Source of the DNA: a virus
Length of the DNA stretch: 64,000 bases
IMG/VR virus record: IMGVR_UViG_3300036466_000503
Location: 1 to 64,000 of that record
Strand: one strand, 5' to 3'
The notes under the pieces are model-generated. The model was not told the origin of the DNA and did not search any database. It worked only from the letters and a program-made list of their open reading frames with translations. This document shows positions 11,081 to 64,000 of this stretch, in pieces (position 1 is the stretch's first letter; each line of letters opens with the position of its first letter). The translations under genes and the position numbers were made by a program.

Positions 11081-11138
11081 TAAATATTAATTTAAAACAT
11101 CTTTCATTTTTGCTAAAAATTTAAGGAGGTTGATCAGT

Positions 11139-14100
11139 TTGGAAGAACAAAAATTTGTAGCCCTCCACAACCATACTGCTAAGGGTTCGCTCTTAGATAG
11201 TATGGTTCGTGTTGAGGAGTTAACCAAAAAGGCAAAAGAGCTTGGTATGAAGTCTGTCGCAATTTCTGACCACGGAACACTTCATTCAATGGTTGATTTT
11301 TATAAGTCTGCACTTAATGAAGGTATAAAACCTATTTTTGCAGTTGAAATGTATATGGTTGAGGATATAAAAGTTAAAGATAAAAACGAGAAAAAAAGAC
11401 ACTTATTATTAATAGCAAAAAACGAAAAGGGTTTTAAGAATTTATTTAAGTTAATTACTATTGGCAATGAACACTTTTACAAAAAACCTCAAATAGACTT
11501 TGAAACCCTATTAAAATATAAAGAAGGATTAATTGTAGGAAGTGCCTGTATTGGTGGAAAAATTCCACAGCTTGCTTTAAAGAAAGATTTTCAGAATATG
11601 ATGAATGAAATAATTAAATATAAAAAAGCTTTTGGTGAAGATTTTTACCTTGAAATAATGGCAAATAAGCTAAAAGAGCAGTTATATGTAAATAAGGTAT
11701 TGGTTAAAGCTTCAGAAAAAACAGGGGTAAAATTAATAGCAACAAACGATATTCACTATTTAAATAAAGAGGACTTTGAAACACACGATATAATGCTTGC
11801 AATACAGACAAAAGCAAAACTAACAGACGAAAACAGATTTAGATTTGAAGCAAACGAGTTTTACCTAAAAGATTATGAAGAAATGAAAGCTGATTTATTT
11901 AATGGAGATAAAAGTTATGACAAATACGCTGAAAAAGCACTTAAAAATACTATTGAAGTAGCTGATAAAGTAGAGGAATTTGAATTGAAATTAGGAGAAA
12001 CAAACTTTCCCGATTATTTAGACTTACCTGATAAATATACTCCTGACGAATACTTAACAGGAATAGCAAACCACAGATTAAAGGGTTTGGCTAAAAATAA
12101 GAATATAAACTATAAGGAATATAAAGAAAGATTGGATTATGAATTGGATATTATCACAGCTAAAGGTTTTTCAACTTACTTTTTAGTTATTGCAGATATT
12201 GTAGGTTGGGGAAAGAAAAATGATTTACTTTTCGGATACGGTCGTGGGAGTGCGGGAAGTAGTTTGGTTTCATATTTACTTGGAATAATTGAAATAGATC
12301 CAATTGAATATGATTTGGTATTTAGTAGATTTTTAAATAAAGAAAGAGATTCTTTACCTGACATCGATATCGACATAAGTAATCAAGCACGGGAAGAAGT
12401 TATTGAATATATAAAGAATAAATATGGTAAAGATTATGTAGCTCAAATCTGTACTTTTGGGACAATGAGTACAAAAGCAGTTTTAAAAGATGTGGGAAGA
12501 ACACTTGGCATAGATTTTATGGAGTTAAATAAAGGAATAGTTCCCTGTATTAAAGACGAGGCAGGCAGTTTATCTGAAGCATTAGAAATGAGCAGTAAAC
12601 TTAGAGGTTATCAAAAGAAATATCCCAAACTCTTTGAACACGCTTTAAAATTAGAAGGTTTGCCACGACATTTGTCAAAACACGCAGGAGCAGTTGTTGT
12701 ATCACCAAAAAAAATTACAGATATAGTACCAATGTCCAATACTAAAGGAGATATGGTTACTCAAACTGAAATGCATGATAGTGAAGAGTTGGGATTATTA
12801 AAGATTGACCTTTTAGGACTTAAAACATTGGATTTAGTAAAAAGAACAATTGACTTTATCGGGGAAAGAAAAGACTATGATAAATTGGATAAAAAAATAT
12901 CAACTAAGGGGTTAAAGAATTTAAGATTAGACGATCCAAAGGTATATAAATATATTTATGAAGAGGGAGACACAAGTGGAGTATTTCAGGTGGAGTCGAA
13001 ACTTTTTAGAGGACTGCTTGAAAAAATGAAACCTGATGACTTTGAACACATTATAGCAATACTTGCACTTGGAAGACCTTCTATCTTGCAGGCTGATTTA
13101 GATAAAACATTTATTAAAAGAATGCACGGAGAAGAAGAAGTAGAATATCCACACGAAGACTTAAAACCAATTTTAGAAAATACTTTTGGAATTATGCTTT
13201 ATCAGGAACAGGTTTTAAAGGTTGCTCAAAAAATTGCAGGGTTTAGTTTAGGTCGTGCTGATATACTTCGGAGAGCAATGGGAAAAAAGAAACCCGAAGT
13301 AATGGAAAAAATGAAAAAAGAGTTTATTGAAGGTTCTTTAGAAAATGGTTATACAAAAGAAAAGGCAGAAGAAATCTTTGAGTTAATAGAATACTTTGCA
13401 GGTTATGGATTTAATAGGTGTTTAAGTGGAGATACTCTATTAGAAAAATCAAATAATGAAAAGTTATCAGTTAAAAATTTATACGATACCTGGCACGAAA
13501 AACAAAAAATAAATTTATTAAGCTTATCAAGTGATGGAAGAATAAGACCACGAAAAGTTAAAAATGTATTTAAAACAGGCAAGAAGAAATTATATAAAAT
13601 CACATTAGAAAACGGTCAGACAATCAAATCAAGTAAAGATCATAAATTTATGACTTCAAATAAAGAATGGAAAAGGTTATATCAGCTATCAGCAGGAGAA
13701 GAGCTTTTAGTTAAGGGAGATTATGAAGAAGAAAGTTATCCTATCATTCCAACTAAAATAATCAGCATTGAATATATTGGAGAAGAAATGACCTATGATA
13801 TTGAAATGTACAGCGATAGTGAAAACGGACATAATTATATTGCAAACGATATTATAACCCACAATTCGCATTCGGCAGCTTATGCCAAACTATCATATAC
13901 AACAGCCTATCTAAAATATTACTTTCCAACAGAATTTTACGCTTCCTTATTAACAATGGAATCAGATAAAACTCCTAAAGACAGCAATATCTCAAAGTAT
14001 ATGTCAGAGTGTTTTCAGAAAGAAATTAATATTAAACCTCCACACATCAATAAAAGTATTGAAGACTTTAATGTAGTTGACGGTGAAATAAGGTTTGGAC

Positions 14101-14681
14101 TTAGAAATATAAGTGGAGTTGGTCAAAAGGCTTTAGAGGATATTTTAGAAAAAAGACCATTTGTAGATTTTTTAGACTTCTTTGAAAGAGTTGACCACAG
14201 GTTAGTTAATAAGACAGTAGTTGAAGCTTTAATTAAATCAGGTTCATTTGATTTTATCAACGAAAATAGAAATGAGTTATTATTTAAATATCAGGAATTA
14301 AGAAAAAATAATAAGGTTAGACAGTATTTACTTCCACAGTTTAATTATGCAGATCAAAAAGAAATACAGGTTTATGAAAAAGAAACACTTTCTTATTCAA
14401 TTACCTTTCCTTCAAAATGGGAAAAAGCTCAAATAGGAGAACACATTTATTATGAAGGAACAATTGAAGATGTATATATTCATAAAACTAAAAATAATAA
14501 TGAGATGGCATTTTTCACACTTGATTTTAAATCGGGGAAAGTAAAAGTTATTTCTTTTCCACAAAATTATTATAAAAATATAGAACAAATTAAAAACGGA
14601 AACTTTATTAAGTTAGTTGGAGAAAAATTGGATAACGAATCACTAAGTCTGAAAGGAGTTGATGAAGCCAATGGGGAATGA
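11139..14681 (+). CDS. dnaE: DNA polymerase III alpha subunit (DnaE type) with mini-intein
   Basis: C-family replicative DNA polymerase. The PHP domain starts at once (LHNHT, residues 8-12, and ISDHG). The palm carries PDIDID with aspartates near 408, 410 and 412. Finger motifs such as GRGSAGSSL, MLYQEQV and RRAMGKKK follow, and the C-terminus has an OB-like region. I use the TTG at 11139 because AAGGAGGT ends at 11130. The host-type polymerase is interrupted by a 149-residue intein (residues 761-909); the spliced enzyme is about 1031 aa. Phage-encoded DnaE implies partly host-independent replication. Confidence 0.95.
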   Translation: MEEQKFVALHNHTAKGSLLDSMVRVEELTKKAKELGMKSVAISDHGTLHSMVDFYKSALNEGIKPIFAVEMYMVEDIKVKDKNEKKRHLLLIAKNEKGFKNLFKLITIGNEHFYKKPQIDFETLLKYKEGLIVGSACIGGKIPQLALKKDFQNMMNEIIKYKKAFGEDFYLEIMANKLKEQLYVNKVLVKASEKTGVKLIATNDIHYLNKEDFETHDIMLAIQTKAKLTDENRFRFEANEFYLKDYEEMKADLFNGDKSYDKYAEKALKNTIEVADKVEEFELKLGETNFPDYLDLPDKYTPDEYLTGIANHRLKGLAKNKNINYKEYKERLDYELDIITAKGFSTYFLVIADIVGWGKKNDLLFGYGRGSAGSSLVSYLLGIIEIDPIEYDLVFSRFLNKERDSLPDIDIDISNQAREEVIEYIKNKYGKDYVAQICTFGTMSTKAVLKDVGRTLGIDFMELNKGIVPCIKDEAGSLSEALEMSSKLRGYQKKYPKLFEHALKLEGLPRHLSKHAGAVVVSPKKITDIVPMSNTKGDMVTQTEMHDSEELGLLKIDLLGLKTLDLVKRTIDFIGERKDYDKLDKKISTKGLKNLRLDDPKVYKYIYEEGDTSGVFQVESKLFRGLLEKMKPDDFEHIIAILALGRPSILQADLDKTFIKRMHGEEEVEYPHEDLKPILENTFGIMLYQEQVLKVAQKIAGFSLGRADILRRAMGKKKPEVMEKMKKEFIEGSLENGYTKEKAEEIFELIEYFAGYGFNRCLSGDTLLEKSNNEKLSVKNLYDTWHEKQKINLLSLSSDGRIRPRKVKNVFKTGKKKLYKITLENGQTIKSSKDHKFMTSNKEWKRLYQLSAGEELLVKGDYEEESYPIIPTKIISIEYIGEEMTYDIEMYSDSENGHNYIANDIITHNSHSAAYAKLSYTTAYLKYYFPTEFYASLLTMESDKTPKDSNISKYMSECFQKEINIKPPHINKSIEDFNVVDGEIRFGLRNISGVGQKALEDILEKRPFVDFLDFFERVDHRLVNKTVVEALIKSGSFDFINENRNELLFKYQELRKNNKVRQYLLPQFNYADQKEIQVYEKETLSYSITFPSKWEKAQIGEHIYYEGTIEDVYIHKTKNNNEMAFFTLDFKSGKVKVISFPQNYYKNIEQIKNGNFIKLVGEKLDNESLSLKGVDEANGE
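13419..13865 (+). other. Mini-intein in DnaE (149 aa)
   Basis: It begins CLSGDTLLEK (block A, catalytic Cys1). The block B region reads SSKDHKFM with the conserved histidine. The end is HNYIANDIITHN, giving the penultimate His and terminal Asn, and the +1 extein residue is Ser. Flanks join as GYGFNR and SHSAAYA, the continuous conserved DnaE motif. There is no homing endonuclease, so it is a compact splicing-only element. The insertion point lies four residues downstream of the position used by the known cyanobacterial split DnaE intein (before CFNKSHS). Confidence 0.95.
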
Positions 14682-46709: not shown

Positions 46710-46739
46710 AAGAGGGGGTTTTCCCCTCTCTTTTTTTTT
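46710..46739. terminator. Terminator between convergent arms
   Basis: AGAGGGG pairs with CCCCTCT, followed by T9 on the plus strand. It ends the late operon where it meets the minus-strand genes. Confidence 0.9.
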
Positions 46740-47184
46740 ACAAAAAAATCATATCGTCTGTAAAAAATTTTACAATAAGCATTCCTTCTTCATTTACATA
46801 GGATTTATAATCAGCTAATTTAAAGTTTTCAGCCTTAGCTCTTAAATACAAAAAATCATATATTTCTTTGTCGGTTATAACCTTTTGTTTTCCTACATAC
46901 TGTCCTTCTTCGGTGGTGTTTATCTTAAAGCTACTTGCATAGTCTGCTTTTTCTTTAAATAAACCTATTACAAAAGCATCTCTTTCTTCTTCATTTTCAA
47001 CTCCAACCATAATATAAGGGTTATTATCAGCTTCCTCTATAAAATTATCGTGTTTTTCGTTTAAATCTTCAAGAAGGGAAGAGGTAAAATAAATAAACAC
47101 TTTATTATTTTCGTTTAATTCTACCCTTGCAAAAGTTGAAGTTGAGCCACCAATCCAATTGAATTTATATTTTTCTTTACTCAT
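46738..47184 (-). CDS. Hypothetical protein of the par operon (148 aa)
   Basis: ATG at 47184 fits GAGGGGGAAG better than the TTG at 47190. Mixed alpha/beta, acidic. It faintly resembles its upstream neighbour (FARVELNENNKVFIYF against PFVSISNKNFNKIYLN), so they may be paralogues. Last gene of the ParM/ParR operon. Function unknown. Confidence 0.65.
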   Translation of the reverse strand: MSKEKYKFNWIGGSTSTFARVELNENNKVFIYFTSSLLEDLNEKHDNFIEEADNNPYIMVGVENEEERDAFVIGLFKEKADYASSFKINTTEEGQYVGKQKVITDKEIYDFLYLRAKAENFKLADYKSYVNEEGMLIVKFFTDDMIFL

Positions 47185-47587
47185 TTTCAACTTCCCCCTC
47201 TTTTAATGGTTCATTAAAATTAGTGTAAAATATATTATCAGAATGTTTTTTTATTTCATAGTGATATTTTTCTCCCTTTGGAACACCTGCAACCTCTGTT
47301 ATTTTCTCAATTAACTTTATTCCATTAATCATTGCTCCAATACCATCAGAGGGTTGAGATATTTTTACAGCGTGTATTTCTTCAGGATCAGCTTCAGTAA
47401 TATACATTTCTTTTTTCTCTTCGTCTAAGGCTATTTTTACAAAATCAGCATTATTTATTTTATCTCTTAAAAAGGTTGAATTTAAATATATCTTATTGAA
47501 ATTTTTATTACTTATTGAAACAAATGGTTTGTTAGGAGTGCTGCCTTGAGCAGAACTTTTAACTTTTTTTCTCCATTTAATAGCCAA
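47177..47587 (-). CDS. Hypothetical protein of the par operon (136 aa)
   Basis: TTG at 47587 after GAAGGGGGA, two bases past the ParR-like stop. Basic N-terminus (KWRKKVKSSAQG) then an alpha/beta body with a ITEADPEEIHAVKIS segment. It overlaps the next gene by 8 bp. Cotranscription with parM and parR suggests a role in maintenance. Confidence 0.65.
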   Translation of the reverse strand: MAIKWRKKVKSSAQGSTPNKPFVSISNKNFNKIYLNSTFLRDKINNADFVKIALDEEKKEMYITEADPEEIHAVKISQPSDGIGAMINGIKLIEKITEVAGVPKGEKYHYEIKKHSDNIFYTNFNEPLKEGEVENE

Positions 47588-47589
47588 TT

Positions 47590-47889
47590 TTATTTATCCC
47601 CCTTCTTTTTTAGAAAACCTTTTTCCATTAATTGAATTAATTTTTTATGGTTTTCTTCATTATTATTGATTATTTCCCCTTTTTTATCAGTATTTTGGAG
47701 TTTTTTTATCAACTCTTCATAAAAATATCCTTCTTCGTGCTTGTGGTATATTTTAAGGGCGTTCCTTATCAATTCGCTCTGTGGCATATTTTTTAATTTT
47801 TCTTTAATAAAATCCAATTCTTCCCTTGTCATATTATTTTCAGATATTCTTGCAGAAATAAGGAAGTGTTCAACTCTTTTTCTACTCAT
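47590..47889 (-). CDS. parR: ParR-like DNA-binding adaptor (99 aa)
   Basis: Directly downstream of and overlapping the ParM-like gene. Small and basic. The part HFLISARISENNMTREELDF with LKNMPQSELIRNALKIY is compatible with a ribbon-helix-helix followed by helices, the fold of ParR-type adaptors, and the C-terminal KKGDK tail is flexible. Such proteins bind centromere repeats and connect them to the actin filament. Gene order and size are the main evidence. Confidence 0.65.
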   Translation of the reverse strand: MSRKRVEHFLISARISENNMTREELDFIKEKLKNMPQSELIRNALKIYHKHEEGYFYEELIKKLQNTDKKGEIINNNEENHKKLIQLMEKGFLKKKGDK

Positions 47890-48910
47890 TATTACTCAAC
47901 CTTTGAGAATGGTACACTCCCAACTTATAATAACCTTTCACATTAGCCTGCTGTGGTTGGTCTAAAACTATTACATTCTTGTTGTTTTTATTTATAAATA
48001 GCTTTTTAATATAATCACCAACAACAATAGCTCCTCCACCTGCCAGGACTATGGTATCAACTCTATCTATCTGCCTATTCCATTGATCTATTAATTGAGT
48101 ATATATGTCTTCTGCAATTATTTCAAAGTTTTTTTGACATTTTGTTAAAATGTTTTCATATTTTTTTGTTCCGTGTCTGATTGTATCATTTCCCTGAAGG
48201 AAGTTATATTGGATAATGTTGTGGGGAATATCAGCTTCAATTGACTTAAAAGCGTCAGAAAGACCAATTTCAAGACCAATTTCTGTATTATTTACAGGCT
48301 CTATTCCTTCACCAATAAAAGCGTCAACAGTATTTCCTCCAATATCACACATAGCATATCTTGCATTAAGAAGAGAGTCTTCTTTAATTTCTCCCGAATA
48401 AGTAAGTATTTGGTTATAATAAGCTCCAATTCCCTGTGGAATACATATTACATTATCAACTATAACCTTTTTTTCCTGACCATTAATTGTAAACCTAAAG
48501 GTTCTATCTGAATAAAACTCCTTTAATTTTTCTTCGTATTCGCTGAATGTATGAATAGAGAGACCAAGAATAAGGTTACCTATTTCTACTGTGTCTTCAT
48601 TTTCTAAAAGGTTAATACCTGCAAGAAATTTTGCAACCTCACTATCGTCTCTAAATTTATCTTTACCAAAGTTTCCAATTCCACCATTACTGCCCTGCCT
48701 AATAGCATATTCTCCAACAAAATAATCTGTATCATTATAATTTAAGATCATTTTATCTTTTGAAAAACTATAATCATTATCATAAAGAATATTTGTTATA
48801 CTTTTTGGTCTGTGGATAATAGAAGGGAAGGTCTCTATTTTATCAACCTCTGTCATTATTTTCTCGCTATCATAACCATTATCCCAACCTACATTTTGAA
48901 TATATTTCAT
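47882..48910 (-). CDS. parM: ParM-like actin ATPase for DNA segregation (342 aa)
   Basis: Actin-family fold: phosphate-1 loop VGWDNGYDS (residues 7-15), phosphate-2 loop MCDIGGNTVDA (187-197) and adenosine motif LAGGGAIVV (289-297). Length 342 is right for plasmid ParM/Alp7A-type proteins. It polymerises with ATP and pushes sister plasmids apart through ParR bound at the centromere. First gene of a minus-strand operon behind a consensus promoter. A ParM in a phage genome implies a low-copy plasmid prophage. Confidence 0.85.
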   Translation of the reverse strand: MKYIQNVGWDNGYDSEKIMTEVDKIETFPSIIHRPKSITNILYDNDYSFSKDKMILNYNDTDYFVGEYAIRQGSNGGIGNFGKDKFRDDSEVAKFLAGINLLENEDTVEIGNLILGLSIHTFSEYEEKLKEFYSDRTFRFTINGQEKKVIVDNVICIPQGIGAYYNQILTYSGEIKEDSLLNARYAMCDIGGNTVDAFIGEGIEPVNNTEIGLEIGLSDAFKSIEADIPHNIIQYNFLQGNDTIRHGTKKYENILTKCQKNFEIIAEDIYTQLIDQWNRQIDRVDTIVLAGGGAIVVGDYIKKLFINKNNKNVIVLDQPQQANVKGYYKLGVYHSQRLSNNE

Positions 48911-48934
48911 TATTTACCCTCAACTCCTTATTTT

Positions 48935-49070
48935 ATAGTGTTTACGCCTTCATTACTGTCATTATAACAGCTTTCAGCTTTTGTGTCAACACTTTCTTTT
49001 ATTTTTTTAAAAGTGTAAACATAAATGTTTATAATTACTGATAGAATAGACCTTAAAGCGTTTACATTTT
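48935..49070 (-). promoter_or_regulatory. par operon promoter with centromere/operator-like motifs
   Basis: TTGACA (complement at 48984-48989), 17-bp spacer and TATAAT (48961-48966) form a perfect consensus promoter. Around it, GTAAAC motifs occur: GTAAACACTAT (48935-48945), a TAAACAT/ATGTTTA inverted repeat near 49016-49031, and TGTAAACGCTTT near 49055-49066. Type II plasmid centromeres usually lie at exactly this place and ParR bound there represses the operon. Confidence 0.75.
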
Positions 49071-49349
49071 AAGAATATAGTGCTGATAAGCATACTGTCC
49101 ATCTTCTGTTATTTCTATGATAGTTTTTCTACCCTCTGACCTTGATTTTAGAAACAATATATTCTCCAACTTCCACAATGTTTTGGTTAGTTGGTGATAG
49201 GTTGTATTCTCCCTAAATTGCCTGTCTAATTGATTTGCTACTTCCTGTCTATTAAGAGTACCTAATTCCCCAAATATCCTCAAAACAGCCCTTTCTCGCT
49301 TATTTAAAGTGGCAATAAAAACTTCTATACATTGTCTTTCTAATTGCAT
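49062..49349 (-). CDS. Winged-helix regulator (95 aa)
   Basis: ATG at 49349 after GAAGGGGG. Residues ~15-60 (LNKRERAVLRIFGELG then LNRQEVANQLDRQF) form a helix-turn-helix and the end (RKTIIEITEDGQYAYQHY) the wing. Located directly before the par operon, with an inverted repeat over its own promoter. A likely local repressor. Confidence 0.7.
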   Translation of the reverse strand: MQLERQCIEVFIATLNKRERAVLRIFGELGTLNRQEVANQLDRQFRENTTYHQLTKTLWKLENILFLKSRSEGRKTIIEITEDGQYAYQHYILKM

Positions 49350-49365
49350 AAAAAAACCCCCTTCA

Positions 49366-49407
49366 ATACGATATAAATATAATATCATACTAAAGAGGGA
49401 ATTTCAA
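49366..49407 (-). promoter_or_regulatory. Promoter and operator of the winged-helix gene
   Basis: Minus-strand TTGAAA (49402-49407) and TATTAT (49379-49384) with 17-bp spacing. ATACGATAT at 49366-49374 and its imperfect inverse ATATCATA at 49382-49389 flank the -10, suggesting autoregulation. Confidence 0.55.
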
Positions 49408-49424
49408 ATATTGTATTAAATTTA

Positions 49425-49649
49425 TTATACTGCATCTATATATTTTCGTTTACTTTTAGGTAAAAACAAAGGGGAAAGAAAACTGCCGTGCATATATATA
49501 GTTGCTTCAAATAGAAAATGTATGTGATCAGCGAAACTTGGGGAAGAAACAAGAAAAACGGTAAAGTAAGAGTTGATTGCTTTTAAAGTGTGTCCCATAA
49601 ATCCCAACAAGTATATCGCTGTTATTATTTTATAAGTTAGTTCTAACAT
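49425..49649 (-). CDS. Small membrane protein, tandem paralogue 1 (74 aa)
   Basis: ATG after AAAGGAGAG. Shares IYLLGFMGHTLKA, F..FL.SSP and FLPKSKRKYI with the next gene upstream; both are exactly 74 aa. Two membrane helices with the conserved SSP turn between them, and a basic KSKRKYI end. A duplicated membrane pair in the maintenance region could exclude superinfection, but there is no direct evidence. Confidence 0.65.
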   Translation of the reverse strand: MLELTYKIITAIYLLGFMGHTLKAINSYFTVFLVSSPSFADHIHFLFEATIYMHGSFLSPLFLPKSKRKYIDAV

Positions 49650-49680: not shown

Positions 49681-49905
49681 TTAAATTTTAATATACTTTC
49701 TTTTCTCTTTTGGAAAGAATAATAAAGAGAAGAAACTCAATAATGAATATATAATACTTTCTATATAAAAGGAGAAGATATCAACAATAGTTGGAGAAGA
49801 AGGTAAAAACTCTGTCCAAAATACATGTAAAGCTTTCAGTAAGTGTCCTAATACGCCCAAGAGATATATATTCTTTACAATTAAGATAATAATTTCTTCA
49901 TTCAT
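49681..49905 (-). CDS. Small membrane protein, tandem paralogue 2 (74 aa)
   Basis: ATG after AGAGGAGTG. Paralogue of the 49425 gene (IYLLGVLGHLLKAL, FLPSSPT, FFPKEKRKYI). Two hydrophobic helices (residues ~5-25 and ~45-64) and a basic C-terminus on the cytoplasmic side. Divergence is high outside the core, so the duplication is old or kept by selection for two different partners. Confidence 0.65.
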   Translation of the reverse strand: MNEEIIILIVKNIYLLGVLGHLLKALHVFWTEFLPSSPTIVDIFSFYIESIIYSLLSFFSLLFFPKEKRKYIKI

Positions 49906-57902: not shown

Positions 57903-58982
57903 CTAATAGGAAGAATTTCTCCTATTAAACCTCTTATGGTCGTTGATATGTCGGACTATTTCGCCCTTTTTAGTTAGTCCGTTTGAAAATACATCTTCCA
58001 ATACTGTAAAGAAATAACCGATATTAGCATTTCTCATAGCTGTAATTTCTAAGAGGTAAAACATTACTCTATTATCCAATGTACGCTCAAAAATAAGCTC
58101 TAACTGCTTCAATGAAGGATATTTGGAGAAGGTTTTGTAAAAATCGACCACAAATTGGTAATTGACTTCTGTCTGATACTCTTCAGGCAAGTTATCCACA
58201 AGCCTTTTTGATTTTTCGAAAAATGAGAGCCTTTCTTCTCCTTCTTCTTTAAGTTCTTGTTTAAGATCTTTAGGGCTATTCTTTGTGGGGTACAACTGTC
58301 GTGGGGACAGAGGTTCCCCACGGTCATTTTTTTTAGTTGCAAAATGTTCCCTACGGTCAGCTTCCTGATTTGACGGGGACTTCTCCTCCTCTGCAAAATG
58401 TTCCCCACGGTGTGCAAAATGTTCCCCACGGTCGCCGTTATCTGCAAAATGTTCCCCACGGTCATTTTTATTTGAGTTTTTTTTGCTTGCCTGTGGATAA
58501 CTTTCTTCTTTACCCTGATTTTCTTTATCTTGACCAACAAAAGGAAAGAGGGAATATGTATTAGTTGCAAATCTACCTAATTTTTCATTTAATATTTTAT
58601 CTCTCTTTTCCTTATTTTTATCTTTTCCATTATCATCTTTTTTAATTGGATATCTTTCATAGGCTAATTGTTCAGTCCAAACTTCCTGTCTTACATGAAG
58701 ATAACCTTCTTCTATCAATTCTCTTTTTGCCCTTTTAACTGTCTTCAGCGAAACCCCCGCTTCTTGTTTAATTCTTTCATTTGAAATAAAACATTTACCA
58801 TCTCCGTCAATGTGTGAAGCAAGAGAAAGAAAAACAACTACTGTACTTGTCTTTAGTTCATTCATTTGAAGTCGTGGGAACATAGTATATAATTTTACAA
58901 AGGAAAGTTTAGAAAAATCTTTGTACATATTAAGCCTTCCTTCGTTCCCGAAGGTTATTGTAGCATCTCTAAATTTACTCAT
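57903..58982 (-). CDS. Replication initiator containing the origin (359 aa)
   Basis: ATG after AAAGGAGTG. N-terminal winged helix (ISNERIKQEAGVSLKTVKRAKREL, ~residues 65-95) and a DnaD-like helical C-terminus (~280-340). The middle is a low-complexity linker with repeated DRGEHFA peptides, produced by 20-bp iterons in the DNA. Lambda O and similar initiators also bind iterons within their own gene. It would recruit helicase and primase encoded downstream. Confidence 0.85.
   Translation of the reverse strand: MSKFRDATITFGNEGRLNMYKDFSKLSFVKLYTMFPRLQMNELKTSTVVVFLSLASHIDGDGKCFISNERIKQEAGVSLKTVKRAKRELIEEGYLHVRQEVWTEQLAYERYPIKKDDNGKDKNKEKRDKILNEKLGRFATNTYSLFPFVGQDKENQGKEESYPQASKKNSNKNDRGEHFADNGDRGEHFAHRGEHFAEEEKSPSNQEADRREHFATKKNDRGEPLSPRQLYPTKNSPKDLKQELKEEGEERLSFFEKSKRLVDNLPEEYQTEVNYQFVVDFYKTFSKYPSLKQLELIFERTLDNRVMFYLLEITAMRNANIGYFFTVLEDVFSNGLTKKGEIVRHINDHKRFNRRNSSY
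58192..58500. other. Replication origin: iterons between two DnaA boxes
   Basis: TGCAAAATGTTCCCCACGGT occurs at 58392, 58413 and 58443, and with one change at 58338. A half copy (GTTCCCCACGGT) is at 58313, facing a GTGGGGA inverse at 58301. Perfect DnaA boxes lie on both sides in opposite orientation: TTATCCACA at 58192-58200 and its complement TGTGGATAA at 58492-58500. T-rich tracts lie between. This is the layout of an iteron-controlled replicon. Confidence 0.85.
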
Positions 58983-60501: not shown

Positions 60502-60897
60502 ATGAAATCAGAAAATAAATTACAACTTTCAAAAGAAGAATTTGCAGAGAAAATAGGTCAAAATATGAGAAAGTATAGAGATGATAGAGGACTTACTCTT
60601 CGTGAAATGGGAGAAAGAACTGACTATACAGGTGGCTATATTGGCTTATTAGAAAAGGGAAATGCCGTTCCTAATACTTATGTCCTAATGCAGATATCAA
60701 AAGCCTTAAATGTGCCTGTAAGCAAGTTATTATCAGAAGATACTTCTCCAATACCTGAAAGTTTAAATGATCCTATCTTTCAGAAAGAAGAGAGTAAACC
60801 TTATATCCAACTAATCAAAGAAATAATGAGCAAAGGTATTGAGCCTGATAAAGTAAGAGAAATAATATCTTTTTATGAAAAAATGAAAAGTGAATAA
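60502..60897 (+). CDS. XRE-family repressor, CI-like (131 aa)
   Basis: ATG after AGAAAGGATT. Residues ~12-65 form a classical helix-turn-helix (NMRKYRDDRGLTLREMGERTDYTGGYIGLLEKGNAVP). The C-terminal helical part (IQLIKEIMSKGIEPDKVREI) probably dimerises. No LexA-type protease domain, so induction would not be by self-cleavage. Divergent from the sigma-like gene with dyad-rich DNA between: a lysogeny switch by layout. Confidence 0.8.
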   Translation: MKSENKLQLSKEEFAEKIGQNMRKYRDDRGLTLREMGERTDYTGGYIGLLEKGNAVPNTYVLMQISKALNVPVSKLLSEDTSPIPESLNDPIFQKEESKPYIQLIKEIMSKGIEPDKVREIISFYEKMKSE

Positions 60898-61023: not shown

Positions 61024-61353
61024 TTATAATACTATTGCATTATTAACTTCCATATCATAATCAAGAATTGTTACTATATTAATTTTATTATTTTCAAATG
61101 TAAAAAGAATGGTTCCAATTCCACTTTTGAGTGCATAAAACTTTTGTGATAAATATTTTGCGTATTGCAGGTCGTGAAATCTATTATGAAATACATAGTT
61201 AATTTCCTGAATTGCTACATTTCTATCATTCATTCTCTTTACAGCGTGTTTTGTGAAATATACATTATAGTGATTGATTTTTGTTTTATTCACGCTTTTT
61301 TGCATTTTTTCAATATCAAAATCATTTGCGTTAATTGAGTTAATATTAATCAT
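61024..61353 (-). CDS. DUF4258/RelE-like protein (109 aa)
   Basis: ATG start. The centre FTKHAVKRMNDRNVAIQEINYVF fits the DUF4258 pattern (HAxxRMxxRxI), a fold related to RelE/BrnT-type toxins, followed by strands with FYALKSGIGTILFTF. No antitoxin gene is adjacent, which leaves an orphan or a non-toxin. The ribosome binding site lies in an inverted repeat (61360-61399). Confidence 0.6.
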   Translation of the reverse strand: MININSINANDFDIEKMQKSVNKTKINHYNVYFTKHAVKRMNDRNVAIQEINYVFHNRFHDLQYAKYLSQKFYALKSGIGTILFTFENNKINIVTILDYDMEVNNAIVL

Positions 61354-61468: not shown

Positions 61469-62371
61469 TTAAAATGTTAATGAGTTAACCTGTTTCTTTT
61501 TACCTTCATTATCAAGGTGGATATATATTTGAGTTGTTGAAATATTTGAGTGCCCTAAAATTTCCTGAAGTGCTTTTATATCTTTTGTCTGTGAATAGAA
61601 GAGATATCCGAATGTGTGTCTTAGGCTGTGTGCTCTTATCTTTTTTTCAATATCTGTCTTTTTTAAATATTTGTCAATGGTTCTGTTTATTGTCTTTTTA
61701 CAAATTCCTCTCCCGCTGCCACTAATAAATAGTTTTGGACTACCTTCTACTGTAAAATCGTTTTTAGCTCTTTCAGTTTCCATATATTCTAATATCTTTT
61801 CTTTTGCCTTCTTATTGAGTGGAACTGTTCTCTGCTTTTTACCTTTTCCGACAAATGTCAGAGAATCGTTTTCAAAGTCAAATTCTTTAATTTTAATATT
61901 AGTTACTTCAGAAGCTCTTAATCCTGAAAAAATCATAAAATAAATAAGTGCTTGGTTTCTTTTGTGGTTTCTGCCTTGATCACTATCAACTACTTTCATA
62001 TACCTGCGTAATTCCTTTTTATTTAAATAGATAGGTTTTGTGTTTTTTTCTTCCTTTGTTCCTTCAAGTTCAAGAGTTGGATTTTCTGAAATGTAATTTT
62101 TACGAGAAAGAAAGAAGAAGAACTTTTTTAGGGCATACATTTTTTTGTTTCTTGTCTTTGGCAGGTTTCCCTGATTGACGCTGTTAAGGTATTCTTCAAT
62201 TGCTATTCTGTCAATATCTCCATTGATAATGTCTTCATATATATAACCGTTGTAATCTATAAAGTTTTCAACTTCTCTTATATAATCTTCAGCAGTTGTT
62301 TCAGCGTTTCCTTTTTCTTCAAGCATATACCCTTCAAAACCACCAAGTAAACCTCTAATCTTTTTATCCAC
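61469..62371 (-). CDS. Tyrosine recombinase / integrase (300 aa)
   Basis: GTG after AAGGAGG. N-terminal SAM-like domain (~1-95), catalytic domain with Arg152 (SGLRASE), His248-Arg251 (HSLRHTFG), His274 (LGHSNISTT) and nucleophile Tyr283 (QIYIHLD). XerC/D-like length. It could integrate the phage or resolve dimers of the plasmid form; the ParM system and origin make the second attractive. Attachment sites are not identified. Confidence 0.9.
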   Translation of the reverse strand: MDKKIRGLLGGFEGYMLEEKGNAETTAEDYIREVENFIDYNGYIYEDIINGDIDRIAIEEYLNSVNQGNLPKTRNKKMYALKKFFFFLSRKNYISENPTLELEGTKEEKNTKPIYLNKKELRRYMKVVDSDQGRNHKRNQALIYFMIFSGLRASEVTNIKIKEFDFENDSLTFVGKGKKQRTVPLNKKAKEKILEYMETERAKNDFTVEGSPKLFISGSGRGICKKTINRTIDKYLKKTDIEKKIRAHSLRHTFGYLFYSQTKDIKALQEILGHSNISTTQIYIHLDNEGKKKQVNSLTF

Positions 62372-63655: not shown

Positions 63656-63875
63656 CGACTCGTTTTTCCGCCCCTGGCTGTTCAGAAAAAATTTGTCTAT
63701 TTTCCTGCAAAATATTTTTTCTAAAATTTCTAAACTAAAATTTAAAAATTTAAAAATTAATTTAGAGAAAATGACTCGTTTTTCAGCCCGTCGCCGTTCA
63801 GGAAAAATGCCTATATTTCCCCAAAACGACTCGTTTTTCAGGGTGCGGCTGTTCTGAAAAGAAGTGTCTATTTCT
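63656..63875. repeat. Three ~49-bp repeats at the right end
   Basis: Copies start at 63656, 63772 and 63827. Each has ACTCGTTTTTC, a short GC-rich centre, TTCxGAAAA and then TCTATTTYC or similar. Copy 1 to 2 is 116 bp and 2 to 3 is 55 bp, near multiples of each other. TTTTTC and GAAAAA can pair across the GC-rich centre. Function unknown. Confidence 0.75.
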
Positions 63876-64000
63876 GTACATAAATGACCTCAATTGTCAT
63901 TTTGTTCATAAATGTCAAGAAATGACCAAAAAAGCCTAAAAAGTGGATATAAATTAATAAATTACAGTAAATGTCCGCAATTGTCAAAATCTATATCCAC
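63876..64000. other. Non-coding right end
   Basis: No gene. AATTGTC, AAATGTC and their neighbours recur, similar to 189-215 at the left end. GTGGATATA (63943-63951) faces TATATCCAC (63992-64000), an inverted repeat ending exactly at the window border. Confidence 0.55.

What the first reader, a model, noticed from the sequence alone, without database searches (positions are those of the whole stretch)
47590..49070. ParM/ParR segregation operon in a complete tailed-phage genome: a phage-plasmid
A ParM-like actin with all nucleotide-binding motifs, an overlapping ParR-like gene and a consensus promoter surrounded by repeat motifs sit beside a full virion gene set, an iteron origin and a tyrosine recombinase. 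This is strong evidence for maintenance as a low-copy plasmid. Two further genes of unknown function (47177, 46738) share the operon and could be new parts of the segregation system.
Basis: partly seen in the sequence, partly recalled or inferred. Interest (0 to 1): 0.8.

Follow-up and report, generated by a model that had tools for sequence, protein, structure and literature searches.

The report
ParM-type DNA-segregation operon in a phage
A complete tailed-phage genome carries an actin-like DNA-segregation operon of the sort low-copy plasmids use, so the phage probably persists as a plasmid; this is a diverged new example of a known arrangement, with two extra co-transcribed genes of unknown role.

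Summary
Window 47882-48910(-) encodes a ParM-family actin-like protein (Pfam ALP_N 6e-18, MreB-like_C 7e-16; PHROG 'partition protein' 1e-45). An overlapping small gene looks like a ribbon-helix-helix ParR. A perfect TTGACA-17-TATAAT promoter is surrounded by four boxes of AAAGYGTWRACA type. The only relative found with this operon (IMG/VR, 87.7 kb) has the same four genes in the same order: ParM 54% identical, ParR about 35-39%, the two extra genes 36% and 28%. Boxes learned from one phage find the par promoter of the other, and in both the -35 hexamer is the end of a box. That makes a conserved operator/centromere well supported. The record has identical 127-bp ends, an XRE-type repressor, a XerD-like recombinase with all catalytic residues, and a replication initiator whose gene holds iterons flanked by DnaA boxes. 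Plasmid-prophage maintenance is therefore the best reading. It is not proven: corynephage CGP3 uses a similar system for lytic-phase DNA positioning. ParM/RHH/Xer plasmid prophages are already known in Bacillus, so this is a new, very diverged member. The two extra genes form a diverged pair found only in these two phages; their link to segregation is untested.

The parts
47882..48910 (-). parM: ParM-family actin-like protein, 342 aa
   Evidence: Pfam ALP_N 6.3e-18 and MreB-like_C 7.2e-16; phrog_691 1.1e-45; nearest solved structures pCBH ParM 6izr/6ixw; 54% identical orthologue in G012
47590..47889 (-). parR-like adaptor, 99 aa, predicted RHH N-terminus, pI 9.4
   Evidence: overlaps parM by 8 nt; weak RHH_1 match here and in the relative; 35-39% identical orthologue
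47177..47587 (-). gene X, 136 aa, unknown; starts right after parR
   Evidence: 36% identical orthologue at the same place in G012; no significant match in Pfam, PHROGs, NCBIfam, phages or plasmids
46738..47184 (-). gene Y, 148 aa, unknown; ATG overlaps X by 8 nt; probable diverged paralogue of X
   Evidence: 28% identical orthologue; best profile match of X among 50 conserved gene pairs and vice versa (E 0.0025, 112 columns)
48961..48989 (-). par promoter TTGACA-N17-TATAAT with TG extension
   Evidence: 12/12 consensus
48935..48946 (+). parC/operator-like box ATAGTGTTTACG
48984..48995 (-). parC/operator-like box AAAGTGTTGACA, containing the -35 hexamer
   Evidence: same register in G012 12717-12728(-)
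49010..49021 (+). parC/operator-like box AAAGTGTAAACA
49055..49066 (+). parC/operator-like box AAAGCGTTTACA
46710..46732 (.). terminator-like hairpin between the convergent operons
49062..49388 (-). winged-helix-like 108-aa gene upstream of par, conserved in the relative; its 3' end overlaps the outermost box
57903..58982 (-). replication initiator (HTH_36 / O-like) containing iterons at 58338, 58392, 58413 and 58443, flanked by DnaA boxes at 58192 and 58492
60502..60897 (+). XRE-family repressor-like protein
   Evidence: HTH_3 3.4e-10; 44% orthologue in G012
61469..62371 (-). XerC/XerD-like tyrosine recombinase with all catalytic residues
   Evidence: TIGR02225 XerD 1.3e-56, below its curated cut-off; R-K-HxxR-H-Y conserved

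Best explanation
This is a type II (ParMRC-class) DNA-segregation operon of a temperate tailed phage that lives as a circular plasmid prophage. ParR dimers bind the AAAGYGTWRACA boxes around the promoter. These boxes act as the centromere and, because one contains the -35 hexamer, also as an operator that represses the operon. The ParR-DNA complex captures ParM filaments, whose growth pushes sister phage-plasmids apart before division. The XerD-like recombinase probably resolves multimers, and the O-like initiator with internal iterons drives episomal replication. Shown here: the genes, the ParM family, operon order, the conserved boxes and their register with the promoter, a record that closes on itself, and a Xer-like recombinase with an intact active site. 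Inferred: ParR function, box binding, filament formation, and maintenance as a plasmid.
For: ParM family by Pfam and PHROGs, with plasmid ParMs as nearest structures and 108 plasmid records against one phage record in tblastn. Overlapping small RHH-like gene. Same operon in a second phage whose par proteins are only 28-54% identical. Box model learned in one phage ranks the par promoter of the other first, in both directions; 0 of 200 column-shuffled models do as well. Identical -35/box register in both. Identical 127-bp and 123-bp ends in the two records. XerD-like recombinase with only SAM-like and catalytic domains, and an XRE repressor. Iterons plus DnaA boxes in the initiator gene. Published plasmid prophages with the same gene set (PMC8026635, PMC6669507).
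Against: The ParR RHH assignment is below Pfam's cut-off. Identical ends also arise from circularly permuted virion DNA. ParM-like systems in phages can serve lytic DNA transport (PMC4446434). No lysogen, host or att site was found. Only four boxes, fewer than the ten of R1 parC (recalled from general knowledge).
Confidence: 0.7

Rival explanations
1. The system works like AlpA-AlpC-alpS of corynephage CGP3: after induction or infection, ParM filaments carry replicating phage DNA to a favoured site (membrane), raising viral replication rather than stabilising a plasmid prophage.
For: The phage brings its own replisome (DnaE, DnaB-like helicase, primase), and CGP3 has the same motor/adaptor/promoter-repeat anatomy with that role (PMC4446434).
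Against: CGP3 is an integrated prophage. This phage has an initiator with iterons, a repressor and a XerD-like recombinase, the gene set of known plasmid prophages. A consensus promoter with a -35-overlapping operator suggests autoregulated constitutive expression rather than lytic-only control.
Confidence: 0.22
2. X and Y are working parts of the segregation system (extra adaptor, filament regulator or DNA-binding proteins), making a four-protein par operon. This is compatible with the main explanation, so the confidences do not sum to one.
For: Tightly coupled to parR, with the order kept in a phage where another gene lies between promoter and parM but none inside the block. X and Y appear to be diverged paralogues and are about as diverged as ParR.
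Against: Gene order is conserved over much of the two genomes, so linkage is weak evidence. No X/Y relative was seen beside three plasmid ParM operons or the Moorella phage one. AlphaFold models too poor to use.
Confidence: 0.25
3. The phage is virulent or only transiently episomal; the operon is a relic or has another use.
For: No host or lysogen seen; ends compatible with packaged permuted DNA.
Against: Intact ParM motifs and conserved boxes despite strong divergence; repressor and recombinase present.
Confidence: 0.08

Closest known systems
Bacillus plasmid prophages with ParM-like plus RHH protein (IEBH, vB_BtS_B83, pBtic235-like group)
   Same: ParM-like protein next to a small RHH gene, iterons in the 165 bp before parM (B83), Xer-family recombinase in B83 and the pBtic235-like group; the latter also carry a DNA polymerase III alpha subunit, helicases, primase and a Holliday junction resolvase (PMC8026635, PMC6669507)
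   Different: The ParM search hit only a Moorella phage in the phage collection at E<=1e-3, so this ParM is very diverged. IEBH and B83 were not found under the accessions tried and could not be compared directly. Two extra genes X and Y here.
pCBH ParMRC of Clostridium botulinum
   Same: nearest solved ParM (6izr, 1.5e-11 with a two-sequence profile); parC directly upstream of parM (PMC6599009)
   Different: described on a large plasmid; low identity; ParR there is separated from parM by about 470 bp
AlpA-AlpC-alpS of corynephage CGP3
   Same: phage-encoded actin, co-transcribed DNA-binding adaptor, repeats in the promoter region (PMC4446434)
   Different: integrated prophage; role in lytic replication; no sequence comparison was made here
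Moorella phage MTATph1 partition protein
   Same: phage ParM-like protein, 31% identical over 57%, followed by small genes, one RHH-like by eye
   Different: 176-kb phage, gene inside a replication cluster, no X/Y

Membership tests
ParMRC (type II) partition system | ParM-family actin-like ATPase with phosphate-1, phosphate-2 and adenosine motifs | tested here: met
ParMRC (type II) partition system | small RHH DNA-binding adaptor encoded just downstream | tested here: inconclusive
   position and size fit; pI 9.4 here but 6.3 in the relative; RHH_1 only at E 0.1-0.16 in both phages
ParMRC (type II) partition system | centromere of repeated sites at the operon promoter | tested here: met
   four boxes; conserved motif and register in the second phage. 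Binding by ParR is not testable here.
ParMRC (type II) partition system | nucleotide-dependent filaments that segregate DNA | not testable with these tools
   needs purified protein and cells
phage-plasmid (plasmid prophage) | virion genes: terminase, tape measure, lysis; conserved head/tail block | tested here: met
phage-plasmid (plasmid prophage) | plasmid-type replication, partition and multimer-resolution genes | tested here: met
   initiator with iterons and DnaA boxes, par operon, XerD-like recombinase
phage-plasmid (plasmid prophage) | circular extrachromosomal prophage in a lysogen | tested here: inconclusive
   record closes by a 127-bp overlap, which also fits permuted virion DNA; the two genome scans (84,980 genomes, short exact patterns) found no relative

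The most novel reading that the evidence does not exclude
The two phages carry a four-protein actin-based segregation operon in which a diverged paralogous pair (X and Y) of an undescribed family regulates the ParM filament or the ParR-centromere complex.
Probability: 0.25. Interest if true: 0.55.

Novelty: new member of a known kind. Interest (0 to 1): 0.35.

Why it matters
It adds a deeply diverged phage lineage to the small set of tailed phages with an actin-type partition system, together with a conserved, testable centromere motif. If X and Y prove to act in segregation, ParMRC would gain accessory components.

Tried and rejected
Searches for ParM, ParM pair profile, terminase, X and DnaB relatives in IMG/VR returned only G012 with this operon; two partial relatives (G011, G013) do not cover the par region. 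Two scans of 84,980 genomes found none, so host and integration state remain unknown. These scans need short exact peptide matches, so distant relatives can be missed. AlphaFold of X and Y with two sequences gave mean pLDDT 38-39 and was not used for fold searches; only the similar order of strands and helices was noted. X/Y profile against solved structures: nothing. I rejected 'conserved synteny proves X and Y belong to the par system' because the genomes are broadly collinear. I rejected a classical phage integrase for the recombinase because the closest models are XerD and XerC and the protein is 300 aa with only the SAM-like and catalytic domains; it scores below the Xer equivalog cut-offs, so it is Xer-like, not XerC or XerD itself.

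Full report
What was checked. The window is 64,000 bases of a 66,704-bp IMG/VR virus record whose first and last 127 bases are identical, so the record closes on itself. Gene 47882-48910(-) is a ParM-family actin-like protein by Pfam and PHROGs. Its nearest solved relatives are ParM proteins, above all pCBH ParM of Clostridium botulinum. The three nucleotide-binding motifs are intact.

Operon anatomy. parM, a small parR-like gene, X (47177-47587) and Y (46738-47184) run head to tail: an 8-nt overlap (parM/parR), a 2-nt gap (parR/X) and an 8-nt overlap (X/Y), with purine-rich stretches before the starts. A perfect consensus promoter with TG extension lies at 48989-48961, and a hairpin at 46710-46732 separates the operon from the convergent plus-strand genes. 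The parR assignment rests on position, size and the RHH-like pattern. The Pfam RHH score is below cut-off here and in the relative, and the protein is basic here (pI 9.4) but not in the relative (6.3).

Comparison. One other phage with the operon was found, G012 (IMGVR_UViG_3300011187_000003, 87,725 bp, 123-bp identical ends). It is broadly collinear with the window: 51 reciprocal gene pairs, terminase 73%, ParM 54%, ParR 35-39%, X 36%, Y 28%. In G012 a 185-aa gene with a signal-like N-terminus lies between promoter and parM, yet the block parM-parR-X-Y is unbroken.

Centromere/operator. Four 12-bp boxes of the form AAAGYGTWRACA surround the promoter of the window phage, and four lie at the corresponding place in G012. 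A weight matrix made from one phage's boxes ranked the other's par promoter first, with two hits in the top three in both directions. The test is not wholly independent of the promoter, because one box in each phage contains the -35 hexamer TTGACA; but the flanking AAAGYG and the boxes outside the promoter are not explained by that. A column-shuffled control gave no comparable cluster in 200 trials. The box containing the -35 has the same register in both phages, which suggests autoregulation by the box-binding protein, as in ParMRC systems.

Context. A 300-aa XerD-like tyrosine recombinase keeps R, K, HxxR, H and Y. An XRE-type repressor gene is present. The replication initiator gene carries three exact and one near-exact iteron between two of the genome's three TTATCCACA DnaA boxes. 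The terminase, tape measure and amidase are named by HMMs; other head and tail genes are conserved in order but unnamed. The phage encodes its own DnaE, DnaB-like helicase and primase.

Interpretation. The gene set matches plasmid prophages described in Bacillus: ParM-like protein, RHH protein, upstream iterons, Xer recombinase, and in the pBtic235-like group DNA polymerase III alpha (PMC8026635; PMC6669507). The authors of PMC8026635 stress that a partition system alone does not prove a plasmid prophage, citing CGP3, whose AlpAC system positions DNA during induction (PMC4446434). I therefore put about 0.7 on plasmid maintenance by a ParMRC mechanism and 0.22 on a lytic positioning role.

The extra genes. 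X and Y have no significant match in Pfam, PHROGs, NCBIfam, phages or plasmids beyond the second phage. Profile comparison against 50 conserved gene pairs makes X and Y each other's best match, Y to X at E 0.0025 over 112 columns and X to Y at 0.023. They are probably diverged paralogues, though two-sequence profiles make this tentative. Structure predictions were too poor to use. Four other ParM operons examined have no recognisable X/Y. Whether they serve segregation is open.

Verdict. Observation confirmed, interpretation partly supported: a strongly diverged new member of a known kind. Host, lysogenic state, DNA binding and filament formation were not testable here.

Noticed in passing
11130-14681: The phage DNA polymerase III alpha (DnaE) carries an intein-like insertion at about residues 764-913.
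   Followed up: no
63657-63880: Three copies of a roughly 47-bp repeat beginning GACTCGTTTTTC in non-coding DNA near the recombinase; could be a recombination or origin site.
   Followed up: no
L002 7062-7227 (record 65062-65227): Perfect 66-bp tandem repeat, 2.5 copies, in an AT-rich stretch.
   Followed up: no
49425-49649 and 49681-49905: Two adjacent 74-aa membrane-protein-like ORFs that look like a tandem duplication (translations).
   Followed up: no
61024-61353 and record 64774-65064: Two small ORFs; the first matches DUF4258 weakly (1e-4) and the second has a similar TKHAxKxM pattern; possible toxin-like genes.
   Followed up: no
G012:C1 49127-49232: Six DnaA boxes about 11-23 bp apart in the relative, away from its initiator gene: a possible second origin.
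   Followed up: no
L018:15835-18945: Ribonucleotide reductase of the relative appears to contain an intein-like insertion (read from the translation).
   Followed up: no
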